Part shown: piece by piece, positions 49,805 to 60,416 of the stretch
Layout of the letters: each line of letters begins with the position of its first letter
How positions within the stretch are numbered: the stretch's first letter is position 1
Assembly: GCF_012027495.1 (NCBI RefSeq)
Contig: NZ_SNUK01000006.1
Location: forward strand, 62,001 to 126,000
Source: Thermococcus sp. JdF3
Lineage (GTDB): Archaea; Methanobacteriota_B; Thermococci; Thermococcales; Thermococcaceae
Length of the DNA: 64,000 bases
Direction of reading: 5' to 3'
Notes under the pieces: generated by a model
Told to the model about the DNA's origin: nothing
Seen by the model: the letters and a program-made list of their open reading frames with translations, nothing else
Databases searched by the model: none
Program-made: the position numbers and the translations under genes

Positions 49805-50091
49805 TCGCCGTCACCCTCCATCCGCATTATAACCGCGAGAGCGAGGGAGGTTATCGCGACGTCCACGACGAGGGTGGTGAGCATGAGCGTTGCCGGGAGA
49901 GGATCAACGGGGTCAGTTGGCATTATCGGCACGTCCTTTTCGGGGGAGTACGCGAGACCTATGAAGAATAGGACAAGCCCGAGGGAGACGATGTTTATCG
50001 AGAGGACTAGCTTTATCGGCTCCCTTTTGGCCATCAGGCCGTAGATTCCAACGAGCATTATCAGGATTCCAGCATGCTCCGGACTAATCAC
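49801..50091 (-). CDS. mnhC: Mrp antiporter subunit C (NuoK-like)
   Basis: A 96-residue, three-helix protein (start MISPEHAGILIMLVGIYGLM) homologous to NuoK/MrpC, with the lysine and glutamate pattern at helix ends and a loop VPIMPTDPVDPLPATLMLTT. GTG start, overlapping the MnhB stop by eight bases; its end overlaps mnhD by four. Confidence 0.88.
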   Translation of the reverse strand: MISPEHAGILIMLVGIYGLMAKREPIKLVLSINIVSLGLVLFFIGLAYSPEKDVPIMPTDPVDPLPATLMLTTLVVDVAITSLALAVIMRMEGDGE

Positions 50092-50485
50092 TTTCGACCC
50101 ACCTCAGCAGGATGTAGAAGACGAACGTGAAAGCCGCGCCGACCTCCAGCCCCACGATCACGTTGAAAGGCAGGATTATCCCTCCCTCCGTCGGCAGGAA
50201 GTTTGAATAGAACGCCCCCAGCCCGAGGCCTGCAATTCCGAGGAGCACCAGCAGCGCCCCGGCGGAGCTCTCTATGAGGCCAGCCCAGTTGAAGTGGAAC
50301 TTCCTCCGGACTTTGCCGTAGCCGTGTGAGGTGATGAGCAGTATCACCGCCACCGCCAGGATAACCCCTCCTTGGAAGCCGCCGCCGGGACTTACGTGGC
50401 CGTAGAGCATCAGATAGGCCGCGTAGGTGACGAGGAATGGGCTTACCATCTTGGTCGTCGTCCTCACGACGGTGCTCATCTTCAC
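50084..50485 (-). CDS. mnhB: Mrp antiporter subunit B (MnhB domain)
   Basis: A 133-residue four-helix MrpB protein with the family motif YGHVSPGGGFQGGVILAVAV and FLPTEGGIILPFNVIVGLEV. It is a structural subunit around the large channel subunits in Mrp complexes. Overlaps the upstream small gene by four bases. Confidence 0.9.
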   Translation of the reverse strand: MKMSTVVRTTTKMVSPFLVTYAAYLMLYGHVSPGGGFQGGVILAVAVILLITSHGYGKVRRKFHFNWAGLIESSAGALLVLLGIAGLGLGAFYSNFLPTEGGIILPFNVIVGLEVGAAFTFVFYILLRWVESD

Positions 50486-50724
50486 TTTTTCTTCCCCCCG
50501 AGGAGGACGTAAAAGCCGATGACGGCCGTGAATAGCAGACTCGCCTCGCCAAGGCTGTCATAGGCCCTCCAGCCGGCCAGGATGGCCGACACTAGGTTGG
50601 GAACGTTTATCTCCGTCCAGTGGGTGACGTAGTACGTGTAGCTCCCTCCGTAGGGCGGCGAGTAGCTCAGCGAGAGGAGCAGAACGCCCAGTGCGAGCGT
50701 CAGGGCGGCGGCAGCGGCCCTCAC
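50482..50724 (-). CDS. Mrp/MBH small subunit (MbhE-like, equals the distal part of MrpA)
   Basis: An 80-residue, two-helix protein with the conserved stretch TEINVPNLVSAILAGWRAYD-SLGEASLLF typical of MbhE and of the C-terminal end of long bacterial MrpA proteins. In this operon the MrpA tail is thus a separate gene, as in thermococcal membrane-bound hydrogenase modules. Four-base overlaps on both sides. Confidence 0.8.
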   Translation of the reverse strand: MRAAAAALTLALGVLLLSLSYSPPYGGSYTYYVTHWTEINVPNLVSAILAGWRAYDSLGEASLLFTAVIGFYVLLGGKKK

Positions 50725-50951
50725 CGCGTCACCCCCTTTATCGTGAAGAGGAACACCCCTATGACTATTGCCCCCACCACTATCGCCGAGAGCGCAACGT
50801 CTGGGGCGTTCAGCTCGAAGAGTGCCAGGATGAAGAGCAGGCTGAGGAGGGAGTATTTAACGACCGCACTGACCAGGTTCCTCTCCTCAACCACCGCAAC
50901 GGCAAGGATCATCATCGCGAGGAAGACCACATCAAGGATTGTCCCAGGCAT
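50721..50951 (-). CDS. DUF4040 domain subunit (MbhD-like)
   Basis: A 76-residue, three-helix protein ending FELNAPDVALSAIVVGAIVI-type sequence, the DUF4040/MbhD pattern that corresponds to a penultimate part of bacterial MrpA. It overlaps MnhG by 20 bases and the next small subunit by four. Confidence 0.82.
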   Translation of the reverse strand: MPGTILDVVFLAMMILAVAVVEERNLVSAVVKYSLLSLLFILALFELNAPDVALSAIVVGAIVIGVFLFTIKGVTR

Positions 50952-51246
50952 ACATGTCCACCACGACTTTTGGCTTTACCCCGTAGCGGTAGGCCCCGCG
51001 CGCTATGGCGTGGCTCACCATGGGGTTTATCATGGCTATAAGGAAGGCCAGGACGAGGAGTTTGGCCCTCACCAGGGCGGGGGCGTTCATGGTGATGATG
51101 AGGTAGAGGATTATGCTCATCGCTCCCCCAGTGTCGCATTTTGTGGCCGCGTGGAGTCTGGTGTAAACGTCGGGAAATCTGAGTATCCCGAGGGCCCCGA
51201 AGAGCATTACAGCTTCCCCGAAGAGGAGGAGCAGAACCTCAAGCAC
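50932..51246 (-). CDS. mnhG: Mrp antiporter subunit G
   Basis: A 104-residue three-helix PhaG/MnhG protein with the family block FGALGILRFPDVYTRLHAAT and the adjacent KCDTGGAMSIILYL. The GTG at 51246 is spaced seven bases from GGAGG; a GTG two codons earlier is the alternative. Overlaps MnhF by eight bases. Confidence 0.87.
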   Translation of the reverse strand: MLEVLLLLFGEAVMLFGALGILRFPDVYTRLHAATKCDTGGAMSIILYLIITMNAPALVRAKLLVLAFLIAMINPMVSHAIARGAYRYGVKPKVVVDMYAWDNP

Positions 51247-51490
51247 CGGCACCCCTCCTTTCCATGTACTTCGCCAGAATCAGTCCCCCGACCGAGTTCA
51301 CCATGAGCAGGACTATCGCGAGGTCTATCAGGTAGTACTCGCCCCTCATGACGGAGACCAGTGCTATTATCACCACCACCTTCGTCGTTATTGTGTTCAG
51401 GCCCACTATCCTGTCTGGAAGGGTCGGTCCCCTGAGCACGCGGTATGTTATCAGCACCGCCGTGAAGACGAGCAGATAGAATGCGCTCAC
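51239..51490 (-). CDS. mnhF: Mrp antiporter subunit F
   Basis: An 83-residue three-helix MnhF protein with the typical core LRGPTLPDRIVGLNTITTKV. The GTG start overlaps the MnhE stop (GTGA), whereas the longer open frame upstream runs antisense-like through mnhE and is not used. Confidence 0.87.
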   Translation of the reverse strand: MSAFYLLVFTAVLITYRVLRGPTLPDRIVGLNTITTKVVVIIALVSVMRGEYYLIDLAIVLLMVNSVGGLILAKYMERRGAGA

Positions 51491-52092
51491 CAGAAGACCT
51501 TCTTGAGCCATTCCTCTATGTCCCCCTTTATTTTTTCTCCGGCCTTCTCCCGGTTGAGGGTCTCCAGGTCTATCCAGTGAACGTAGAGGTAGGTCTCGTC
51601 GAGCTTCTTCTTGACGTCCAGTGTAAGGGTGCCGGGCGTCAGGGTTATGGAGTTCGCGAGTATCGTTACGCCCGTGTCGGAGTGCAGATCGGTCCTTATC
51701 TTGACGATGCCGGGGTTGATATCCATGAATATTACGTTCCTGGCCACCTTCACGTTGCTCTCCAGCAGGCGGAAGGCCATTATCACCAGATACTGGGGCA
51801 GGTAGATGAGGGCGAAGTAGAGGATTTTCTCGAGTACGTGGCCGCTCCTCCTCACGTCTCCGGTCAGGAGATCGCGCATGAAGAGCGACACAAGGAGGGT
51901 AACCACGGCGCCGGTGATTAGGTTCCTCGGCTCCACACTGGAGGTTATGACGATCCAGAACGCCATCAGGGCGAGCCAGGTCAGGGCCACCCTTTCCCAG
52001 GGCGGCAGGCCGGACGCCCCGGAGGTTTCGTGGAGAACCCTCTCGTTGAGGGTCTTCAGCCTCTCCTTTAGGTAGAAGGGGACGCGGCTCAT
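51487..52092 (-). CDS. mnhE: Mrp antiporter subunit E
   Basis: A 201-residue MnhE protein: two or three N-terminal helices, then the family domain (NVKVARNVIFMDINPGIVKI, TLTPGTLTLDV, LYVHWIDLE). About 30 residues longer than bacterial MrpE at the N-terminus. First gene of the eight-gene operon E-F-G-D'-E'-B-C-D. The ATG lies 26 bases from the centre of a TATA box with no ribosome binding site, so the message is predicted leaderless. Confidence 0.87.
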   Translation of the reverse strand: MSRVPFYLKERLKTLNERVLHETSGASGLPPWERVALTWLALMAFWIVITSSVEPRNLITGAVVTLLVSLFMRDLLTGDVRRSGHVLEKILYFALIYLPQYLVIMAFRLLESNVKVARNVIFMDINPGIVKIRTDLHSDTGVTILANSITLTPGTLTLDVKKKLDETYLYVHWIDLETLNREKAGEKIKGDIEEWLKKVFW

Positions 52093-52114
52093 GTGGTGGT
52101 TTAGGGTACGAGGG

Positions 52115-52122
52115 GTTATAAC
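52115..52122 (-). promoter_or_regulatory. TATA box of the Mrp operon
   Basis: GTTATAAC, centred 26 bases before the mnhE ATG on the minus strand, which places the transcription start at or very near the start codon. Confidence 0.55.
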
Positions 52123-52287
52123 GCTTTTGCAATTGGCCAAAGGATTGCCCAGATCTGTGAAATTCGTTCGGAGTTCTTCGGGAAACACCGAAACTTTGTG
52201 CAGCCGAAGTGAAAACGGCGAATGCAGAATCCTTCACTCATGGAAAGGTTTAAATCTCTGCTCTTCCTACGAGAACCGGTGATGTTC

Positions 52288-52692
52288 ATGATTGAAGTCG
52301 GAGAATACAGGGTTAAGGAGGGCCTCTACTACACGAAGGACCACGAGTGGGTCCAGGTTCTCGATGACGGGACGGTTCTGGTGGGCATAAGCGACTACGC
52401 CCAGAAGGAGCTCGGCGATCTTGCATACGTCGAGCTTCCGGAGACCGGCTCCGAACTCAACAAAGGCGACGTTCTCTGCGAGCTTGAGAGTGTCAAGGCC
52501 GTTTCCGAGGTCTATGCCCCGGTCAGCGGCGAGGTCGTCGAGGTCAACGAGGAGCTCGAGGACAGCCCGGAGCTCATCAACGAGGACCCCTACGAGAACT
52601 GGATAGTCAAGCTCAAGCCGGGCAACCTCGACGAGGAGCTCAAGGAGCTTATGGACGCCAGCGCTTACGCTGAGTACCTTGAGAGCCTCTGA
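52288..52692 (+). CDS. gcvH: Glycine cleavage system H protein
   Basis: A 134-residue H protein of usual length with the lipoylated lysine Lys70 in ELESVKAVSEVYAP and the start YYTKDHEWVQV. It shuttles the methylamine group between the P, T and L proteins, none of which is in the window. GGTGATGTTC sets the internal ATG as start. A TTTAAATC box lies about 40 bases upstream. Confidence 0.95.
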   Translation: MIEVGEYRVKEGLYYTKDHEWVQVLDDGTVLVGISDYAQKELGDLAYVELPETGSELNKGDVLCELESVKAVSEVYAPVSGEVVEVNEELEDSPELINEDPYENWIVKLKPGNLDEELKELMDASAYAEYLESL

Positions 52693-52738
52693 GCAAGGCT
52701 TTAATACTTTTCTACTCTATCCCTTCTGGTGTTGGGTC

Positions 52739-53077
52739 ATGAAGGTTCTCAAGGAGTGGGACGTGAAGGTAAAGCTCGTAAGGACAAAGAGGGGCGCTGT
52801 TCTGCACATGATAGAACTTGAGCCTGGCCATTTCTACCTCGAGCAGAACCCGCTTAAGGATTCAAAGTACGGTGTCGCCTACAGGAAGATAAAGGAGAAC
52901 TTCCCCGAGTTCTACATGTTCTGGGAGATAAAGAACAACCGCTACACCGGCAAGCTCCTTGCCGGGGCGATCTTGGAGAAGAAGGAGATAGACGAGTTCG
53001 TCACCCTGCTCGCTAAGACGGAGGACTTCAAGAAGTTTGAGGAGATCCTCGAGGAAATCGAGGAGATGGAGGAGTAG
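52739..53077 (+). CDS. Protein of unknown function, thermococcal
   Basis: A 112-residue soluble protein with mixed charged composition (KLVRTKRGAVLHMIELEPGH, KENFPEFYMFWEIKNNRYTG) ending in an acidic helix. The longest open frame starts 20 codons earlier in the gcvH tail; I use the ATG at 52739. It has its own TATA-like TTTAATAC about 40 bases upstream. No known domain recognised. Confidence 0.65.
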   Translation: MKVLKEWDVKVKLVRTKRGAVLHMIELEPGHFYLEQNPLKDSKYGVAYRKIKENFPEFYMFWEIKNNRYTGKLLAGAILEKKEIDEFVTLLAKTEDFKKFEEILEEIEEMEE

Positions 53078-53084
53078 TGAGCTC

Positions 53085-53243
53085 AGGCTTTGACCATCAT
53101 CACCGCTGCGCGAGGCGCAGTCTCAGATACCCTAGAGGTCTTCATCGCTCGCCTCGTTCCTCGATTGGGGGCGGAGAGCCCTCTGTTCGTGAGCGACAAT
53201 AACCGCCTAGTTAAATCGCTCACAGAGAGCCCCCCCCACTACC
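53085..53243 (-). ncRNA. Candidate structured non-coding RNA with its own promoter
   Basis: On the minus strand a strong promoter (GAAAGTTATAAAAG, TATA at 53263-53270) is followed about 25 bases on by a region of nested stems: GGGGGC/GCCCCC outer arms (53229-53234 with 53167-53172), a CTCTG/CAGAG part, and a perfect GTGAGCGA/TCGCTCAC stem (53189-53196 with 53216-53223, 19-base loop), then a 6-bp CTGCGC/GCGCAG hairpin (53106-53120). Box-like GCGATGA, CTGA, GTGATGA and CTGA elements near the 3' end recall C/D sRNAs but the spacings are off. Small frames on either strand lack ribosome binding sites. Confidence 0.45.
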
Positions 53244-53295
53244 GCCTATTCCGTCGTCGGGGCTTTTATAACTTTCGTTCTTTTCAGATACCCTA
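53123..53295. repeat. Short direct repeat TCAGATACCCTA
   Basis: Two copies of TCAGATACCCTA lie at 53123-53134 and 53284-53295. On the minus strand both fall at the end of a wider match of about 33 bases beginning CGNGCGNTRAARAC, i.e. a partial duplication shared by the candidate RNA and the adjacent gene relic. Confidence 0.6.
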
Positions 53296-53476
53296 CCCGT
53301 TTTTAGCGCCCGGTGCTCATAGGGATCCCCGACGTTTACTCGCTGTCTGTGCGTGAACCGCAGAAGCTCAGCGAGGTCTGTCACTTCCTTGACCTCGTCT
53401 GTTTTTTGGAATGCGATGAGCTTCACGAACAGTTTACGAGGCCGTCGAGCACTCTGAACACTTCGCGCTCATTCAT
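53220..53476 (-). pseudogene. Frameshifted small gene next to the restriction island
   Basis: A good start (GGTGAAAGT then ATG at 53476, with a TATA-like TTAAACC upstream) begins MNEREVFRVLDGLV and stops after 17 codons. In another frame the coding-like sequence goes on (KLFVKLIAFQKTDEVKEVTD, then LAELLRFTHRQRVNVGDPYE) and ends at 53220. One or two indels near 53430 would restore a protein of about 80 residues. I do not recognise the family; relic status is an inference from the intact signals and broken frame. Confidence 0.45.
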
Positions 53477-53543
53477 ACTTTCACCGGTAATAATAGTGGA
53501 CAAAGGGGTTTAAGACTCGTAATGATGTGACACCGACGAGAAA

Positions 53544-53577
53544 GTTTATATACTCCAATGTGTCTGATATGTGTCTG
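53544..53577 (+). promoter_or_regulatory. Promoter and putative operator of the restriction-modification unit
   Basis: TTTATATAC (53544-53552) is the TATA element. Around the expected start point are two direct copies of ATGTGTCTG (53558-53566 and 53569-53577), 11 bases apart, one helical turn, directly before the ribbon-helix-helix gene. This is the arrangement expected for an RHH autorepressor. Confidence 0.5.
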
Positions 53578-53590
53578 GAGTGTGTGCCCC

Positions 53591-53770
53591 ATGGGTAAGA
53601 GGGTTCAGGTGACATTCACTGATGAGCAATGGGGGATTTTACAAAGGTTTAAGGGGAAGATGGGAGAAAGCGATGCGGATGTCATCCGTAACATCGTCTT
53701 ATCTTGGTTATCGGAGAAATCAATTATGTCCACGATTGTGAAAAGGGAGATTTCGGAGGGTGAAAAATGA
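53591..53770 (+). CDS. Small ribbon-helix-helix (CopG-like) protein
   Basis: A 59-residue protein: a beta strand KRVQVTFTDEQ followed by two helices (WGILQRFKGKM, DADVIRNIVLSWLSEKSIM), the ribbon-helix-helix pattern of small DNA-binding repressors. It overlaps the methyltransferase start by four bases and is therefore the first gene of the R-M transcript; a control-protein role is inferred from that position and from the repeats at the promoter. Codon use is AT-rich, unlike the genome average. Confidence 0.75.
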   Translation: MGKRVQVTFTDEQWGILQRFKGKMGESDADVIRNIVLSWLSEKSIMSTIVKREISEGEK

Positions 53771-54684
53771 AAATTCCAGCTATAAAGACTACACACAAAA
53801 TTATTTTCGGGGATTCAAGGTATATGGATGAAATCGAGGATGAGAGTGTCCATCTTGTTGTAACATCCCCACCTTACCCAATGATTCAAATCTGGGATGA
53901 CCTCTTCAAAAGTCTCGACGACCGCATAAGGGAAAAGTGGGAAGAACTCGAACAAACTACCGATGAGAATGAGAAGGAACGGATCGCATATCAAATCTAT
54001 GAACTGATGCACGAGGTTCTTCTTCCCGTTTGGAAAGAACTGTATAGGGTGCTTATCCCCGGGGGAATTGCCTGCATCAATATTGGTGATGCAACGAGGA
54101 AAGTGAATGGTATCTTCAGGTTGTTCCCGAACCACTCAAAGATTATAGAGCACTTTGAGAAGATTGGTTTCGTCACACTTCCATATATCCTTTGGAAAAA
54201 ACCCACCAACAAACCGAATGCATTCCTCGGTTCTGGTTTTCTTCCGACAAATGCTTATGTAACTCTCGATGTAGAATATATTCTCATATTCAGGAAGGGA
54301 GGCCCAAGAAGGTTTAAACCAAAAGACCCATACCGATATGCAAGTAAATACACGAAGGAAGAGCGAGACAGATGGTTCTCACAGATTTGGAACGACATCA
54401 GGGGAGTTCGTCAGAATCATAGTGCCCTCGCGAGGAGAACGGCGGCCTACCCCGAAGAGATACCCCGCAGGCTTATTAGGATGTTCTCTATCATTGGAGA
54501 TACCGTTCTCGACCCGTTCCTTGGTACGGGAACAACGACAAAGGTCGCCATTGAGCTAAAAAGGAACAGCATTGGGTACGAAATTGACCCCAATCTCGAA
54601 CCTGTGATAAAAGAGAAAATAGGAGCCAACCAGCGCAGGATTGATAGCCCCTTCGAGGTTCGATTCATTCATCGTGGGCAATGA
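53767..54684 (+). CDS. Type II DNA methyltransferase, beta class (probable N4-cytosine, CTAG-type)
   Basis: A 305-residue SAM-dependent DNA methyltransferase. Catalytic motif IV TSPPYPMIQIWDD is N-terminal (residues 33-45) and SAM motif I DPFLGTGTTTKVAIELKRN is C-terminal (from residue 249), the beta-class order. TSPPY points to N4-cytosine (or N6-adenine) methylation, and PMIQIWDD resembles what I recall of the CTAG enzymes M.MjaI and M.MthZI. It is convergent with two nuclease genes. AT-rich codon use marks the whole block as acquired. Sequence specificity is an inference. Confidence 0.85.
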   Translation: MKIPAIKTTHKIIFGDSRYMDEIEDESVHLVVTSPPYPMIQIWDDLFKSLDDRIREKWEELEQTTDENEKERIAYQIYELMHEVLLPVWKELYRVLIPGGIACINIGDATRKVNGIFRLFPNHSKIIEHFEKIGFVTLPYILWKKPTNKPNAFLGSGFLPTNAYVTLDVEYILIFRKGGPRRFKPKDPYRYASKYTKEERDRWFSQIWNDIRGVRQNHSALARRTAAYPEEIPRRLIRMFSIIGDTVLDPFLGTGTTTKVAIELKRNSIGYEIDPNLEPVIKEKIGANQRRIDSPFEVRFIHRGQ

Positions 54685-54691
54685 TCCCCCA

Positions 54692-55795
54692 TCATCTTTT
54701 GTCGAATAACCTGAAACTGAGAGTTGTCCCGCTTCTGGTGTATTTAACGAGGATAATCTCTTCAATTGTTCCGATTGGAGTTATCAGGTCTTCGAATGCC
54801 CTTCTGTTTATAGTGAAATTCTCGGCAACTATAACACCAGTGACTTTGAAATCACTCTGGTCGGCGCCGAAGAACTGGTCGAGATAAGAAGCCCGTACTG
54901 CAAGTTTTTTGAGTTCTTCTCGTAGTGCTGTCCAGTTTAAAGAACCTGCCTTAAGCTCCCATATCCATGGGTTGATAATTCTACCATTTCGTTCGTTCCA
55001 GGTTAAGAGGTCTGCCATTTTTAGATATCCAAGGGGGACTGTATTAAGAACATGACTATGTCTAAATTCAAGGCCGGATATGGTCAATGTCCCTTTGCGG
55101 ATACGATGAACCAACACGGCCTCGAGGTTTTTCTCATAACCATCCTGAAATGTATCAAAGGTCATAGGAGCAAAATTTACGGCGGGGGGCTGTCCAGCGA
55201 TGGGAGTGTCCGGCTGAGAGTAGTTCTCGAACAGGTCAATAATCCTCTCAAAATCTTTGCGGGTTACCCCCTTTATTGTTTTGTTTTTGTCCTCATATCT
55301 AAGCCGTGATGGCAGGCTAGTGATTCTTCCACGGACTATATCATTGAACAGTGGATCCATCGGCATCTCTTTGAAATATAACTCATCGACGGGGATTATA
55401 GGTATCCACCACACAAAATTTCCCGAATTTACAGTGGTAGTCACCGTGCTCCAGTTGTTGTTCCAAGTACTTGTGTTGACATTTTGTCCATCGAAGAGAT
55501 GCGAAAGGCCTGCATCGACAACAGGGTCTCCGTTAACCTCAAACACTCCAGTGATAGAACCCTTGGTATGAAGAAGGATGTAATCCCTCTCTCTCACCCG
55601 CGCAAGATCGGCGAGAATATCCCAATTCATTTTGACAGAATTTCCCACCCATTTTTTAAGGTGGGTTTCCTCACTCTCCCCCCTGCGCTTTGGTTCTCTT
55701 GTAAGCACAGGTCGTATTCCTACGAGTCCATCCTGTATGAATTGTGTCCTTATCTCATCCGAGTCGCAGGTTATGATATGATACTGCCTGCCCAT
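54692..55795 (-). CDS. PD-(D/E)XK nuclease-like protein with possible PUA/EVE-like N-terminus
   Basis: A 367-residue protein. The N-terminal 120 residues (QYHIITCDSDEIRTQFIQDG, then RVRERDYILLHTKGSITGVF) look like a PUA/EVE-type reader fold. The C-terminal part has a PD-(D/E)XK-type arrangement: conserved acid in YEKNLEAVLVHRI, LKMADLLTW and the E-X-K in PWIWELKAG, similar in layout to NucS/DUF91 nucleases. It could be a modification-sensing nuclease or the partner of the restriction enzyme. Starts four bases after the upstream gene's stop region with GGGGTGAGC, so likely co-transcribed with it. Not recognised as a named family. Confidence 0.6.
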   Translation of the reverse strand: MGRQYHIITCDSDEIRTQFIQDGLVGIRPVLTREPKRRGESEETHLKKWVGNSVKMNWDILADLARVRERDYILLHTKGSITGVFEVNGDPVVDAGLSHLFDGQNVNTSTWNNNWSTVTTTVNSGNFVWWIPIIPVDELYFKEMPMDPLFNDIVRGRITSLPSRLRYEDKNKTIKGVTRKDFERIIDLFENYSQPDTPIAGQPPAVNFAPMTFDTFQDGYEKNLEAVLVHRIRKGTLTISGLEFRHSHVLNTVPLGYLKMADLLTWNERNGRIINPWIWELKAGSLNWTALREELKKLAVRASYLDQFFGADQSDFKVTGVIVAENFTINRRAFEDLITPIGTIEEIILVKYTRSGTTLSFRLFDKR

Positions 55796-55808
55796 TTTGC
55801 TCACCCCT

Positions 55809-56486
55809 TTAGAGAAAGCTCTCCACTAATCTCGCAAATTCGGAGTAATCTATTTTCAAACCGGTTTTGGTCTTCTCATAATAGATGATCGGTGCCTCTA
55901 TATTTTCTTTCAGATGTTTCTCCTGTTTGTAGGTTACACCCTTTATCGAAACCGGGAACTCTCTCCCATTGATCATGATAAATCCATCGATGCCTTTTGA
56001 TTCCTCTTCAGGAGAGGATAATCTATAACTCATAGAATCCCCCGCGAAAATTTCAGCAAGCTTGCTAAGGATTGGTCTCTGAACCATAAGTCCCCAGAAA
56101 GTCTTCTTTAGTATCAAATCTTCTACCCACTCACGAATGGTGACTTCGTCTATACTTTCCAAGACTTTCCGCATTTCTTCAATTTTCTTTTCAATCCGTT
56201 TGACGGCTCTGTCGATGGCTTCCTCTCCAGTGACTCCTGGGATAACTTCCTTTGAAAGGTAGAAGTTCTCCCAGTTGTCAAAAGTCCATTTGTTCTTTGG
56301 GTATTCCTTTTGGAACTCTTTTATGAGTTCGGACATTTGGCCCACAGCGCGCGGTCTTGTTGCTTGGGCGAAGTTGTTCGCCAAATTTATTAGGGGAGAA
56401 ACATACTTTTCAAATTCCGTTTCTGGGACATCCAGAACCCTCATCAATTCCTCTCGTTTAATAACAACTTCATAGGCTTTGGGCAC
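55809..56486 (-). CDS. Type II restriction endonuclease, MjaI-like
   Basis: A 225-residue protein with a PD-(D/E)XK-type core at the C-terminus: SSPEEESKGIDGFIMINGRE followed by FPVSIKG (acid, then S-I-K). Length, overall helical N-terminal half and the pairing with a TSPPYPM methyltransferase fit the RE_MjaI family (recognition CTAG). GTG at 56486 has GGTGAT five bases upstream. It is transcribed opposite to the methyltransferase, so nuclease and protective methylase come from separate promoters. Family assignment is from memory of motifs. Confidence 0.6.
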   Translation of the reverse strand: MPKAYEVVIKREELMRVLDVPETEFEKYVSPLINLANNFAQATRPRAVGQMSELIKEFQKEYPKNKWTFDNWENFYLSKEVIPGVTGEEAIDRAVKRIEKKIEEMRKVLESIDEVTIREWVEDLILKKTFWGLMVQRPILSKLAEIFAGDSMSYRLSSPEEESKGIDGFIMINGREFPVSIKGVTYKQEKHLKENIEAPIIYYEKTKTGLKIDYSEFARLVESFL

Positions 56487-56547
56487 GACCATCACCAGTG
56501 AAATTCTCGTTACACAGACTCATAAAGTTGACGACACGAGGGTTTTG

Positions 56548-56694
56548 TACCGGGAGTTCAAGGCATGGGAGGTTCTTGGTATTCGCGTGGCCGCAACGAC
56601 GGGCGACTACGACTCGACCGATGAGTGGCTCGGAAGGTACGACATAATCATCGCCACCTCCGAGAAGTTCGACTCACTCCTGAGGCACGGCTCG
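56548..56694 (+). pseudogene. Fragment of Hel308 DNA helicase
   Basis: Forty-nine codons read YREFKAWEVLGIRVAATTGD and go on YDSTDEWLGRYDIIIATSEK-FDSLLRHGS without interruption. This is the motif Ia/Ib region of archaeal Hel308 (Ski2-like) helicase, nearly unchanged. Both flanks lack any further helicase sequence: homology breaks off sharply on each side. It lies between the restriction block and the second ATPase and looks like a duplicated or captured fragment. Confidence 0.7.
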
Positions 56695-56782
56695 GCCAGT
56701 ATGCCCCTCATCACGGGTCAGCTACCGTTAGGCTCGTCATCGCCGTACTGTCCTCCACCCTCACCTGATAAACTTCACGAAA

Positions 56783-56827
56783 CCCTTATAACTTCTGCCC
56801 CGGTAGTTAACTACTGGGGTGGTAGTT
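56783..56827 (+). promoter_or_regulatory. Promoter and palindromes before the second ATPase
   Basis: CCCTTATAAC (56783-56792) is the TATA element. Between it and the start codon are the perfect palindrome GTAGTTAACTAC (56803-56814) and the interleaved AACTAC-N7-GTAGTT (56809-56827). Positions relative to TATA box and start are the same as in the other ATPase gene although the sequences differ. Confidence 0.6.
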
Positions 56828-57922
56828 GTGTACTTTGACACCCGGCCGAAGAGAAGGCGGGAGGACCTGTACGACAGGGAAGAGGAGCTTGCGGAGTTCG
56901 AGCGCTCAATCAGGTCCGGAAACCCCCTCACCGTAATAACCGGCATAAGGAGGCTTGGGAAAACGTCCCTTCTCGTGGTGGGCCTGAACGAGCTCGCGGT
57001 TCCGTACGTTCTCGTGGATTTCAGGGGGGTAAACCCGAACTCCCGAATGGACGTTTACCGGAGGATAGAGAGCTCGGTCAATGCCTTCCTTCGCGAAAAC
57101 CGCGACCTCTGGGAGGAGCTCAGGAGAGACCTCAAGAACATAACGGGCCTCAGGGTTCTGAGCTTCGGGGTGAGCTTCTCCTGGAAGGACGAGAGAACCG
57201 ACCTCATAGCGCTCTTCCGGGAACTGGAAAAATACGACGTCGTCCTGGCCTTCGATGAGGTTCAGTACCTCCGGGGGCCGGTGGGGAGTGAATTCGCGGG
57301 CATCGTGGCCCACCTCTACGATTACTCCGACCTCAGAATGGTTATGACGGGTTCAGAGGTGGGCCTGCTCCACGATTACCTGGGCCTCGACGACCCGAGG
57401 GCCCCCCTTTACGGCAGGTACTTCCATGAGATTTCCCTTCACAGGTTCTCACCGGAGCAGAGCAGGGAGTTCCTCAGGATAGGCTTTGAACAGGTCGGTT
57501 TGAATCCCCCCGGAGAGCTCATAGACCTTGCCGTGGAGAGGCTCGACGGCATAGTGGGGTGGCTCGTTCTCTTTGGTAGGAAGGCAATGGAAAAGGGGCT
57601 CACCGAGAACCTCGTAGATGATGTTTTCGAGGAGGCAAGGGCCCTCGCCATGGAGGAGTTCGAGAACTTCCTTTCGAAGAGACCCGCCGCTAGAAAACGG
57701 TACGTCGAGATAATGAGGGCCGTTGCCAGCGGCAGGAGAACGTGGGAGGAGATAAAGGAACACCTTGAGATGAAGGAAGGCAGGAGCGTAGCCGACAGCG
57801 TGCTGGCAAGGCTTCTCAAGGCCCTTGTTGACTCCTCGTTCCTTGAGAAGAAGCGCGAGGGAAGAAACGTCCGCTATAGCATTCCCGACCCGATACTCGA
57901 GGAGTGCTTCAAGGAAAAATGA
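56828..57922 (+). CDS. Archaeal ATPase (ATP_2/STAND-like), paralog of the gene at 31322
   Basis: A 364-residue P-loop ATPase: Walker A variant ITGIRRLGKTSLLVVGL, Walker B VVLAFDEVQYLR, sensor MTGSEVGLLHDYLGLDDPRA, and a C-terminal winged helix (TWEEIKEHLEMKEGRSVADS). By alignment with the paralog (MLFDLQPKTRRED against MYFDTRPKRRRED) I place the start at GTG 56828, directly after a palindrome. Such ATPases are solitary and of unknown function. GC content here is back to the genome average, so the R-M island ends before it. Confidence 0.85.
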   Translation: MYFDTRPKRRREDLYDREEELAEFERSIRSGNPLTVITGIRRLGKTSLLVVGLNELAVPYVLVDFRGVNPNSRMDVYRRIESSVNAFLRENRDLWEELRRDLKNITGLRVLSFGVSFSWKDERTDLIALFRELEKYDVVLAFDEVQYLRGPVGSEFAGIVAHLYDYSDLRMVMTGSEVGLLHDYLGLDDPRAPLYGRYFHEISLHRFSPEQSREFLRIGFEQVGLNPPGELIDLAVERLDGIVGWLVLFGRKAMEKGLTENLVDDVFEEARALAMEEFENFLSKRPAARKRYVEIMRAVASGRRTWEEIKEHLEMKEGRSVADSVLARLLKALVDSSFLEKKREGRNVRYSIPDPILEECFKEK

Positions 57923-57931
57923 ATGAAAGGG

Positions 57932-60249
<2,318 letters not shown>

Positions 60250-60416
60250 AATGAACACCTCCGTACACAGGTTCAAACTTGGTCATCTAAAGGTTTGCAA
60301 CCTGTGGTGTTTATAAAGATGTTGTTAACCAAAGGTTTGCTGAGCGGAAGAATCCTCGAGCGTGCTGGGAAAAGATTAAAAAACGTTCGCAAAAAGGGCT
60401 GTTGGGGGGTAACGCT

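What the first reader, a model, noticed from the sequence alone, without database searches (positions are those of the whole stretch)
56548..56694. Uninterrupted 49-codon fragment of Hel308 helicase at the island edge
A short stretch of highly conserved helicase sequence with nothing before or after. It must derive from a hel308 gene, by duplication, aborted recombination or capture. Its near-perfect preservation argues for a recent event or for use of this DNA segment as a recombination or targeting site.
Basis: partly seen in the sequence, partly recalled or inferred. Interest (0 to 1): 0.5.

Follow-up and report, generated by a model that had tools for sequence, protein, structure and literature searches.

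The report
Helicase scrap at restriction-cassette junction
A 149-base scrap of a DNA-repair helicase gene, nearly identical to that of another species of the genus, marks the repaired edge of a restriction-enzyme gene cassette placed between two small-RNA genes, a spot where four related genomes also carry inserts; the scrap itself is most likely a non-functional scar.

Summary
Window 56548-56694 is exactly 49 codons (residues 85-133) of Hel308, without the rest of the gene. A full, intein-bearing hel308 lies 13.7 kb downstream in the same orientation. The scrap is not a copy of it (88% identical): it matches hel308 of another species, G026, at 148 of 149 bases. It is one end of a 3.5-kb block carrying an MjaI-type restriction-modification system, and that block replaces a ~35-bp linker between two tandem C/D-box sRNA genes. 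The scrap joins Rfam sR51 inside a 9-bp word (ACGGCTCGG) shared by hel308 and the sR51 3' end. The next gene (to ~58,000) is 94-98% G026/G017-like but 76-83% like the relatives closest elsewhere, so scrap and flank probably arrived together. The same linker holds inserts in four other genomes of 61: at least two unrelated kinds, three of the five with restriction-type genes. Best reading: a microhomology-guided repair patch at the edge of a restriction cassette, later imported by recombination. No evidence supports use as a recombination or targeting site. The scrap alone is modest; the sRNA-bounded slot is the more interesting result.

The parts
53081..53149 (-). C/D-box small RNA gene ('sRNA2'), left border of the slot; best Rfam match sR14, below its cut-off
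   Evidence: cmscan 22.7 bits, gathering 38, E 8e-4; its core is found in 59 of 61 genus genomes, own included
53152..53573 (.). left arm ('leader') of the insert: decayed start of a leftward gene (MNEREVFRVLDG..., my reading) plus promoter region, related to left arms of the inserts in G030 and G063 and to a leader next to another R-M locus in G013
   Evidence: local alignment against 60 shuffles: z = 15.7 (G030), 8.5 (G063), 24 (G013), 5.5 (G065), none for G068 or the native G012 locus; 82% over 53445-53573 to G013
53558..53770 (+). 70-aa small protein, weak ParG (ribbon-helix-helix) match; first gene of the R-M module
   Evidence: Pfam PF09274 20.8 bits, just under its cut-off of 21.4; a similar ORF precedes M in G027
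53767..54684 (+). DNA methyltransferase (N6_N4_Mtase)
   Evidence: PF01555 E 9.7e-45; 94% to G027; 52% to a Methanothermobacter plasmid methylase
54692..55804 (-). 370-aa protein without family match, extra gene inside the R-M module; absent from the G027 copy
   Evidence: no Pfam, PADLOC, PHROG or PDB match; G027 has M and R adjacent
55809..56495 (-). MjaI-type restriction endonuclease
   Evidence: PF09568 E 1.3e-54; PADLOC REase_II E 1.3e-58
56547..56695 (+). hel308 fragment, 49 intact codons (56548-56694), residues 85-133, 148/149 to hel308 of G026
56687..56695 (.). 9-bp word ACGGCTCGG shared by hel308 and the native sR51 3' end of G026: the right junction
   Evidence: two copies in the 19-kb G026 locus, one in hel308 and one at sR51
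56690..56744 (-). sR51 C/D-box sRNA gene, left intact; box D reads CCGA as in G026 and 15 of 20 native relatives
   Evidence: Rfam RF01305 48.4 bits, gathering 38, E 1.3e-9; native sequences, count
56819..57922 (+). archaeal ATPase gene in the imported right flank
   Evidence: PF01637 E 3.1e-16; 94-98% to G026/G017 against 76-83% to G012/G034/G001/G035/G033

Best explanation
The fragment is a scar. In a donor related to G026, a cassette occupied the ~35-bp linker between two tandem C/D-box sRNA genes. When its right end was broken or replaced, the end was rejoined through a 149-bp piece of the hel308 gene that lies about 13.4 kb away in the same orientation. The joint with sR51 was made on the 9-bp word ACGGCTCGG present in both. 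The likely chemistry is template switching or microhomology-mediated end joining: the broken end copies a stretch of hel308, lets go, and anneals to sR51. The block (R-M genes + scar + sR51 + ATPase gene) was later brought into the window's lineage by homologous recombination, with the left exchange at or near sRNA2 and the right exchange near 58,000. Shown by sequence: likely source of the fragment, 9-bp joint, empty sites, foreign-looking right flank, inserts of other genomes in the same slot. Inferred: that the R-M genes came with the flank, order of events, the donor, and the repair pathway.
For: Fragment 148/149 to G026 hel308, 88% to own hel308, while own hel308 is 94-95% to G012/G034/G031 in its window, i.e. 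native. The right joint lies in a 9-bp word shared with sR51; a random joint in that region has 9 or more shared bases with frequency 7e-5, and the word occurs only twice in 19 kb of G026, at exactly these two places. Native linkers of 34-37 bp (49 in G002) in 20 of the 22 relatives scanned; 41 of 61 genus genomes match the native-spacing pattern. The flank 56688-58000 is 94-98% to G026/G017 but 76-83% to G012, G034, G001, G035 and G033, of which G012, G034 and G001 are 91-98% identical in the windows on either side. The same slot holds inserts in G030, G063, G065 and G068. Archaeal microhomology-mediated repair is reported for Saccharolobus islandicus (PMC12019639, abstract and outline seen).
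Against: The left joint of the fragment (R-M side) shows no shared bases with hel308, and the original right flank of the cassette is unknown, so two-sided microhomology cannot be shown. Two copies of the 9-bp word also turn up in 6 of 200 shuffles of the 19-kb G026 locus. No genome with an intermediate, and no donor, was found; G026 and G017 both have empty sites. hel308 of G017, as near as G026 over the flank, is only 81% identical to the fragment. The genome is a 48-contig draft and no reads were available.
Confidence: 0.6

Rival explanations
1. Collapsed tandem duplication or circle junction. Unequal exchange between the two direct 9-bp words (sR51 and hel308, 13.4 kb apart) duplicated the segment or excised it as a circle; nearly all of the first copy was then lost or replaced by the R-M cassette, leaving 149 bp.
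For: The joint 'hel308 upstream part - ACGGCTCGG - sR51' with both in the same orientation is exactly the joint of such a duplication or circle.
Against: No other remnant of the 13-kb segment was seen in the island against six relatives, so a second, near-complete deletion is needed.
Confidence: 0.2
2. Stray DNA. A short piece of G026-like DNA was ligated to the R-M cassette before uptake, and one end integrated by short homology (homology-facilitated illegitimate recombination).
For: Such one-sided integration is known in bacteria (PMC3240628, search listing with start of abstract only).
Against: The piece comes from a gene only about 13.5 kb away in the same orientation; by my arithmetic a random source in a ~2-Mb genome would do that in about 1% of cases.
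Confidence: 0.12
3. Functional segment: the helicase fragment is kept as a recombination or targeting site, for example for the low-specificity pTN3-type integrase.
For: 149 bp exceeds the 104 bp reported as the shortest segment for the pTN3 integrase (PMC5495485, abstract and passages); the genome encodes tyrosine recombinases on contigs C3 and C5.
Against: Present in 1 of 61 genus genomes; only 88% identical to the resident hel308; no CRISPR-spacer-like match in the genome; preservation is explained by recency. Whether any of the recombinases is of pTN3 type was not tested.
Confidence: 0.03
4. Assembly chimera between the genome and contaminating DNA.
For: Draft of 48 contigs; foreign-looking tract.
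Against: Estimated contamination 0.22%; the flank is 94-98% to G026/G017, identical to neither, and runs into native sequence near 58,000; four other genomes, one of them (G063) a single contig and two more at least 98% complete, have inserts in the same slot.
Confidence: 0.05

Closest known systems
R-M gene insertion with long target duplication / R-M-linked rearrangement (Nobusato et al. 2000, not read, cited in PMC3031569)
   Same: An R-M unit without its own recombinase sits in a chromosomal slot with an empty site in relatives, and a rearranged host sequence at its edge.
   Different: Here the edge sequence is not a duplication of the target: it is a piece of a gene 13 kb away, of another species' type, joined on 9 bp.
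Microhomology-mediated end joining / templated filler DNA
   Same: Short foreign or distant filler with microhomology at a joint.
   Different: Natural event seen only as a scar; one joint lacks demonstrable microhomology.
Integration at 3' ends of tRNA genes (SSV-type and pTN3-type elements; recalled)
   Same: Insertion abuts the 3' end of a small structural RNA gene, which stays intact.
   Different: The RNA genes are C/D-box sRNAs, no integrase was recognised in the insert, and no direct repeat lies at its two ends.
MjaI / MthZI-type (CTAG) Type II R-M systems
   Same: MjaI-family endonuclease; methylase 52% identical to one on a Methanothermobacter plasmid. CTAG specificity and the name MthZI are recalled, not tested.
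   Different: An extra 370-aa gene between M and R.

Membership tests
Hel308 gene or protein | Walker A, DExH box and the remaining helicase domains in one reading frame | tested here: not met
   Only residues 85-133 are present; no GKT or DExH around it in the locus.
Insertion with long target duplication | Direct duplication of target sequence on both sides of the insert | tested here: not met
   The linker is lost, not duplicated. One search lists seven weak direct-repeat families; the longest (29 nt, 66-76%) links sRNA2, the left arm and sR51, none lies at both ends of the insert.
Site-specific integrative element | Recombinase gene and att-type direct repeats | tested here: not met
   No recombinase family matched among the island ORFs searched, no direct repeat at both ends; tyrosine recombinases lie on contigs C3 and C5.
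Microhomology-mediated end joining scar | Short identical sequence at the joint between two unrelated sequences | tested here: met
   9-bp word at the right joint, chance 7e-5.
Microhomology-mediated end joining scar | Microhomology also at the second joint | tested here: inconclusive
   The original right flank of the cassette is unknown.
MjaI-type restriction-modification | RE_MjaI endonuclease next to an N6/N4 methylase | tested here: met
   in the window a 370-aa gene stands between the two, in G027 they are adjacent.
MjaI-type restriction-modification | Cleavage and methylation of CTAG | not testable with these tools
   CTAG is ten times rarer than base composition predicts (29 against 302 in 80 kb), which is compatible but not specific.
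sR51 C/D-box sRNA | Covariance-model score over the family's cut-off | tested here: met
   48.4 bits against 38.

The most novel reading that the evidence does not exclude
The pair of tandem C/D-box sRNA genes is a true docking site for defence cassettes in this genus. The sR51 3' end (box D and terminal stem, GGCTCGG) acts as a recombination anchor, as tRNA 3' ends do for integrases, and cassettes with a common left arm swap their restriction cargo there. The hel308 piece was captured because it happens to carry the same anchor word.
Probability: 0.14. Interest if true: 0.65.

Novelty: new variant of a known kind. Interest (0 to 1): 0.4.

Why it matters
It gives a base-level record of how a restriction-modification cassette without its own recombinase was fitted into an archaeal chromosome: a 9-bp joint, a patch from a nearby gene, and probable inter-species transfer of the finished block. 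It also points to a slot bounded by two small-RNA genes, where 5 of 61 genomes carry inserts with Type II, Type IIG or HsdR-like genes or a shared family of putative membrane proteins; this is a place to look for uncharacterised archaeal defence genes. The insertion removes the conserved TATA-like box of sRNA2, a testable cost to rRNA modification.

Tried and rejected
Duplication of the present own hel308 was rejected: 20 of 149 bases differ from own hel308, one from G026. Intein homing as the cause was rejected: the intein of own hel308 is residues 332-734, about 0.6 kb from the part captured. A tyrosine-integrase relic at the left end (suggested to me by 'SPLFVSDNNRLVKS') was not supported: no PHROG match. 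Carriers of the fragment: none in the plasmid collection at blastn sensitivity, and none in viral contigs for the exact 24-base joint. CTAG cutting as the source of the break: CTAG lies in sRNA2 in all 17 loci printed and in 5 of 20 native linkers, but not in the linkers of G026 or G034; suggestive only. Family searches for the 370-aa gene gave nothing. Paper searches: none of the held papers has all of 'Thermococcus', 'box sRNA', 'genomic island' and 'insertion'; 6 papers hold the terms, two of which I opened and searched for words only without finding such a slot. The library holds only open-licence papers, so this is weak evidence of novelty.

Full report
WHAT IS THERE. The window is bases 62,001-126,000 of contig C6 of a 2.14-Mb draft genome, G000. 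That the genus is Thermococcus is inferred from the record titles of the nearest relatives and from Rfam families; no call names the organism. At 56548-56694 the plus strand encodes 49 uninterrupted codons of Hel308, residues 85 to 133, between the GKT motif and the DExH box of the full gene. DNA identity extends over 56547-56695.

The complete hel308 of this genome starts at window-equivalent 69,958 on the same strand; the counterpart of the fragment is 13.7 kb downstream. It is 1129 codons long and includes a 403-residue intein at residues 332-734 (the intein call is my reading of the sequence: C at the start, HN before S). Own hel308 differs from the fragment at 20 of 149 bases. The hel308 of G026, another species of the genus, differs at one, and that change is synonymous. 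In the 1-kb window that holds this part, own hel308 is itself 94-95% identical to G012, G034 and G031, which resemble G000 over most of the region, so it is the native allele. The fragment is the foreign one.

It is unique among the genomes searched. A genus search with the fragment hit 58 of 61 genomes; only G000 had two hits. I checked 71 fetched loci for hel308 context: 69 have GKT upstream and DExH downstream without a stop close by. The two exceptions are the fragment itself and a locus fetched for sR51, not hel308. These 71 loci include some genomes twice and leave out the 50 more distant loci.

THE SURROUNDINGS. Immediately right of the fragment lies sR51, a C/D-box sRNA gene on the minus strand (Rfam 48.4 bits, cut-off 38). 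Left of the island lies a second C/D-box gene, sRNA2, at 53081-53149 (best Rfam score below the cut-off, 22.7 against 38). Its core is found in 59 of 61 genus genomes, own included.

In relatives the two genes are neighbours: the linker is 34-37 bp (49 in G002) in 20 of 22 relatives scanned, and the native-spacing pattern matches 41 of 61 genomes. All 20 linkers carry GTTAAAA or GATAAAA, that is TTTTAAC or TTTATC on the minus strand, some 22-30 nt upstream of sRNA2: a TATA box, by my reading. In G000 the linker is gone, replaced by 53152 to about 56686, and I see no such box at that distance from sRNA2 in the sequence printed. sR51 and its upstream TTTATC are intact.

The island holds a small ParG-like protein, an N6/N4 DNA methylase, a 370-aa protein without family, and an MjaI-type endonuclease. 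G027 carries the same module (methylase 94%, endonuclease 76%, without the 370-aa gene) at another locus. On its endonuclease side lies a resident gene (mtnA by my recognition) found in all eight genomes searched, and the only hel308 match of G027 is on another contig. G006 has a short relic of the module.

THE JOINT. Native sR51 in G026 reads GGCTG ACGGCTCGG CCAGTATG; hel308 of G026 reads GAGGC ACGGCTCGG GCTGGATA; G000 reads GAGGC ACGGCTCGG CCAGTATG. The crossover therefore lies in nine shared bases, 56687-56695. In about two million random pairs of positions from the G026 locus, nine or more shared bases at a joint occurred with frequency 7e-5. The word occurs twice in 19 kb of G026, at hel308 and at sR51, 13.4 kb apart; 6 of 200 shuffles of that locus also held it twice or more. 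If the donor had GCGGCTCGG, as 9 of 20 relatives do, the overlap is eight bases (frequency 2e-4). The left joint of the fragment shows no overlap with hel308, but the former flank of the cassette is unknown.

THE IMPORTED BLOCK. By windowed identity, 56688 to about 58,000 is 94-98% identical to G026 and G017 and 76-83% to G012, G034, G001, G035 and G033. In the windows on either side (50,000-53,151 and 58,300-60,400) G000 is 91-98% to G012, G034 and G001, and 77-90% to G026 and G017. The flank that follows the fragment thus has a G026/G017-like source, with an exchange near 58,000 and the other at or close to sRNA2. That the R-M genes came in the same step is inferred, since neither G026 nor G017 has them in this slot. 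In that table the row 53000-56688 mixes island and flank and should not be read.

A SHARED INSERTION SLOT. Besides G000, four genomes have an insert bounded by the sRNA2 5' end and the sR51 3' end: G030 (6.6 kb), G063 (2.0 kb), G065 (1.5 kb) and G068 (1.15 kb). Cargo: a Type IIG-like restriction-methylase and a 570-aa protein in G030; an HsdR N-terminal-like protein in G068; proteins without family match in G063 and G065. The 570-aa protein of G030, the 339-aa protein of G065 and the two ORFs of G063 belong to one family (25-40% identity, E 2e-11 to 3e-29) and look membrane-bound to me. So the inserts are not five independent kinds: G068 is one, the others are linked by shared cargo or left arm.

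Of the 20 genomes that did not match the native pattern, five are these inserts (G000 included). Nine keep a native-type linker with sR51 changed or lost, or just miss the pattern (G005, G006, G009, G018, G028, G029, G075, G078, G082; my reading). Four are unresolved (G015, G021, G025, G073) and two gave no sRNA2 hit (G027, G032). Rfam at the gathering cut-off confirms sR51 in the fetched loci of G026, G065 and G068 but not in those of G030 and G063, where only the 3' core was recognised by pattern.

The left 450 bp of the G000 island are related to the left arms of the G030 and G063 inserts (z 15.7 and 8.5 against 60 shuffles), weakly to G065 (5.5), not to G068, and most closely (z 24) to a leader in G013 that stands before another methylase gene with an EcoRII-C-like neighbour (weak match, below the Pfam cut-off) at a different place in that genome. 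G030 and G063 also share right-arm stretches; in G000 no such right arm was found and the hel308 piece stands there instead.

INTERPRETATION. The simplest history is cassette turnover in this slot in a G026-like donor, with the right end healed by a patch from hel308, 13.4 kb away, annealed to sR51 on nine bases, followed by transfer of the block into the G000 lineage. Nearness and equal orientation of the source favour a local event over ligation of stray DNA. A tandem duplication or excised circle would give the same joint but then needs near-complete loss of the first copy. Microhomology-mediated end joining by primase is reported in Saccharolobus (PMC12019639, abstract and outline). For Thermococcus kodakarensis, homologous recombination is said to have been detected with 500 bp or more, and the pTN3 integrase acts on segments as short as 104 bp (PMC5495485, abstract and passages); neither explains a 9-bp joint. 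R-M units are linked to rearrangements and movement in bacteria (PMC3031569, passages).

FUNCTION OF THE FRAGMENT. I find no evidence for one. Its preservation is explained by recency. It has no further copy apart from hel308 in the genome, and no other searched genus genome has a second hel308 match.

LIMITS. The CTAG specificity of the R-M system is recalled, not tested.

Noticed in passing
53152-56686, and L223, L114, L220, L221: The linker between two tandem C/D-box sRNA genes is an insertion slot: 5 of 61 genus genomes carry 1.15-6.6 kb inserts between the same borders, of at least two unrelated kinds.
   Followed up: partly
L223:816-2525, L114:8222-9407, L220:389-1405: Three of the slot inserts share one family of putative membrane proteins without Pfam match; in G063 it is split into two ORFs.
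   Followed up: partly
53150-53180: The island removes the conserved TATA-like box of sRNA2; the sRNA gene may be silent or read from another promoter.
   Followed up: partly
54692-55804: A 370-aa protein without any family match inside the R-M module; by eye an EVE/PUA-like N-terminus and a WELKAG nuclease-like motif, so possibly a modification-dependent nuclease.
   Followed up: partly
G000:C6, window-equivalent 70951-72159 (L003): Own hel308 carries a 403-residue intein in the TPTL/SAGINLP motif; about 1.2 kb of extra sequence is absent from hel308 of G026, G017, G012, G001 and G020.
   Followed up: partly
whole window plus 16 kb: CTAG is about tenfold under-represented (29 seen, 302 expected from base composition).
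   Followed up: no
L115:8230-11743: In G013 a leader related to that of the window's island stands before a different methylase and a weakly EcoRII-C-like gene, suggesting a common arm of R-M cassettes.
   Followed up: partly
L114:9590-9640: The G063 insert ends with what reads like the start of a serine recombinase (MAVFAYLRVSTSEH, then stop), perhaps an IS607-type relic (recalled).
   Followed up: no
L081:8224-10026: A second locus of the same R-M module, in G027, next to an mtnA-like gene, without the 370-aa gene.
   Followed up: partly
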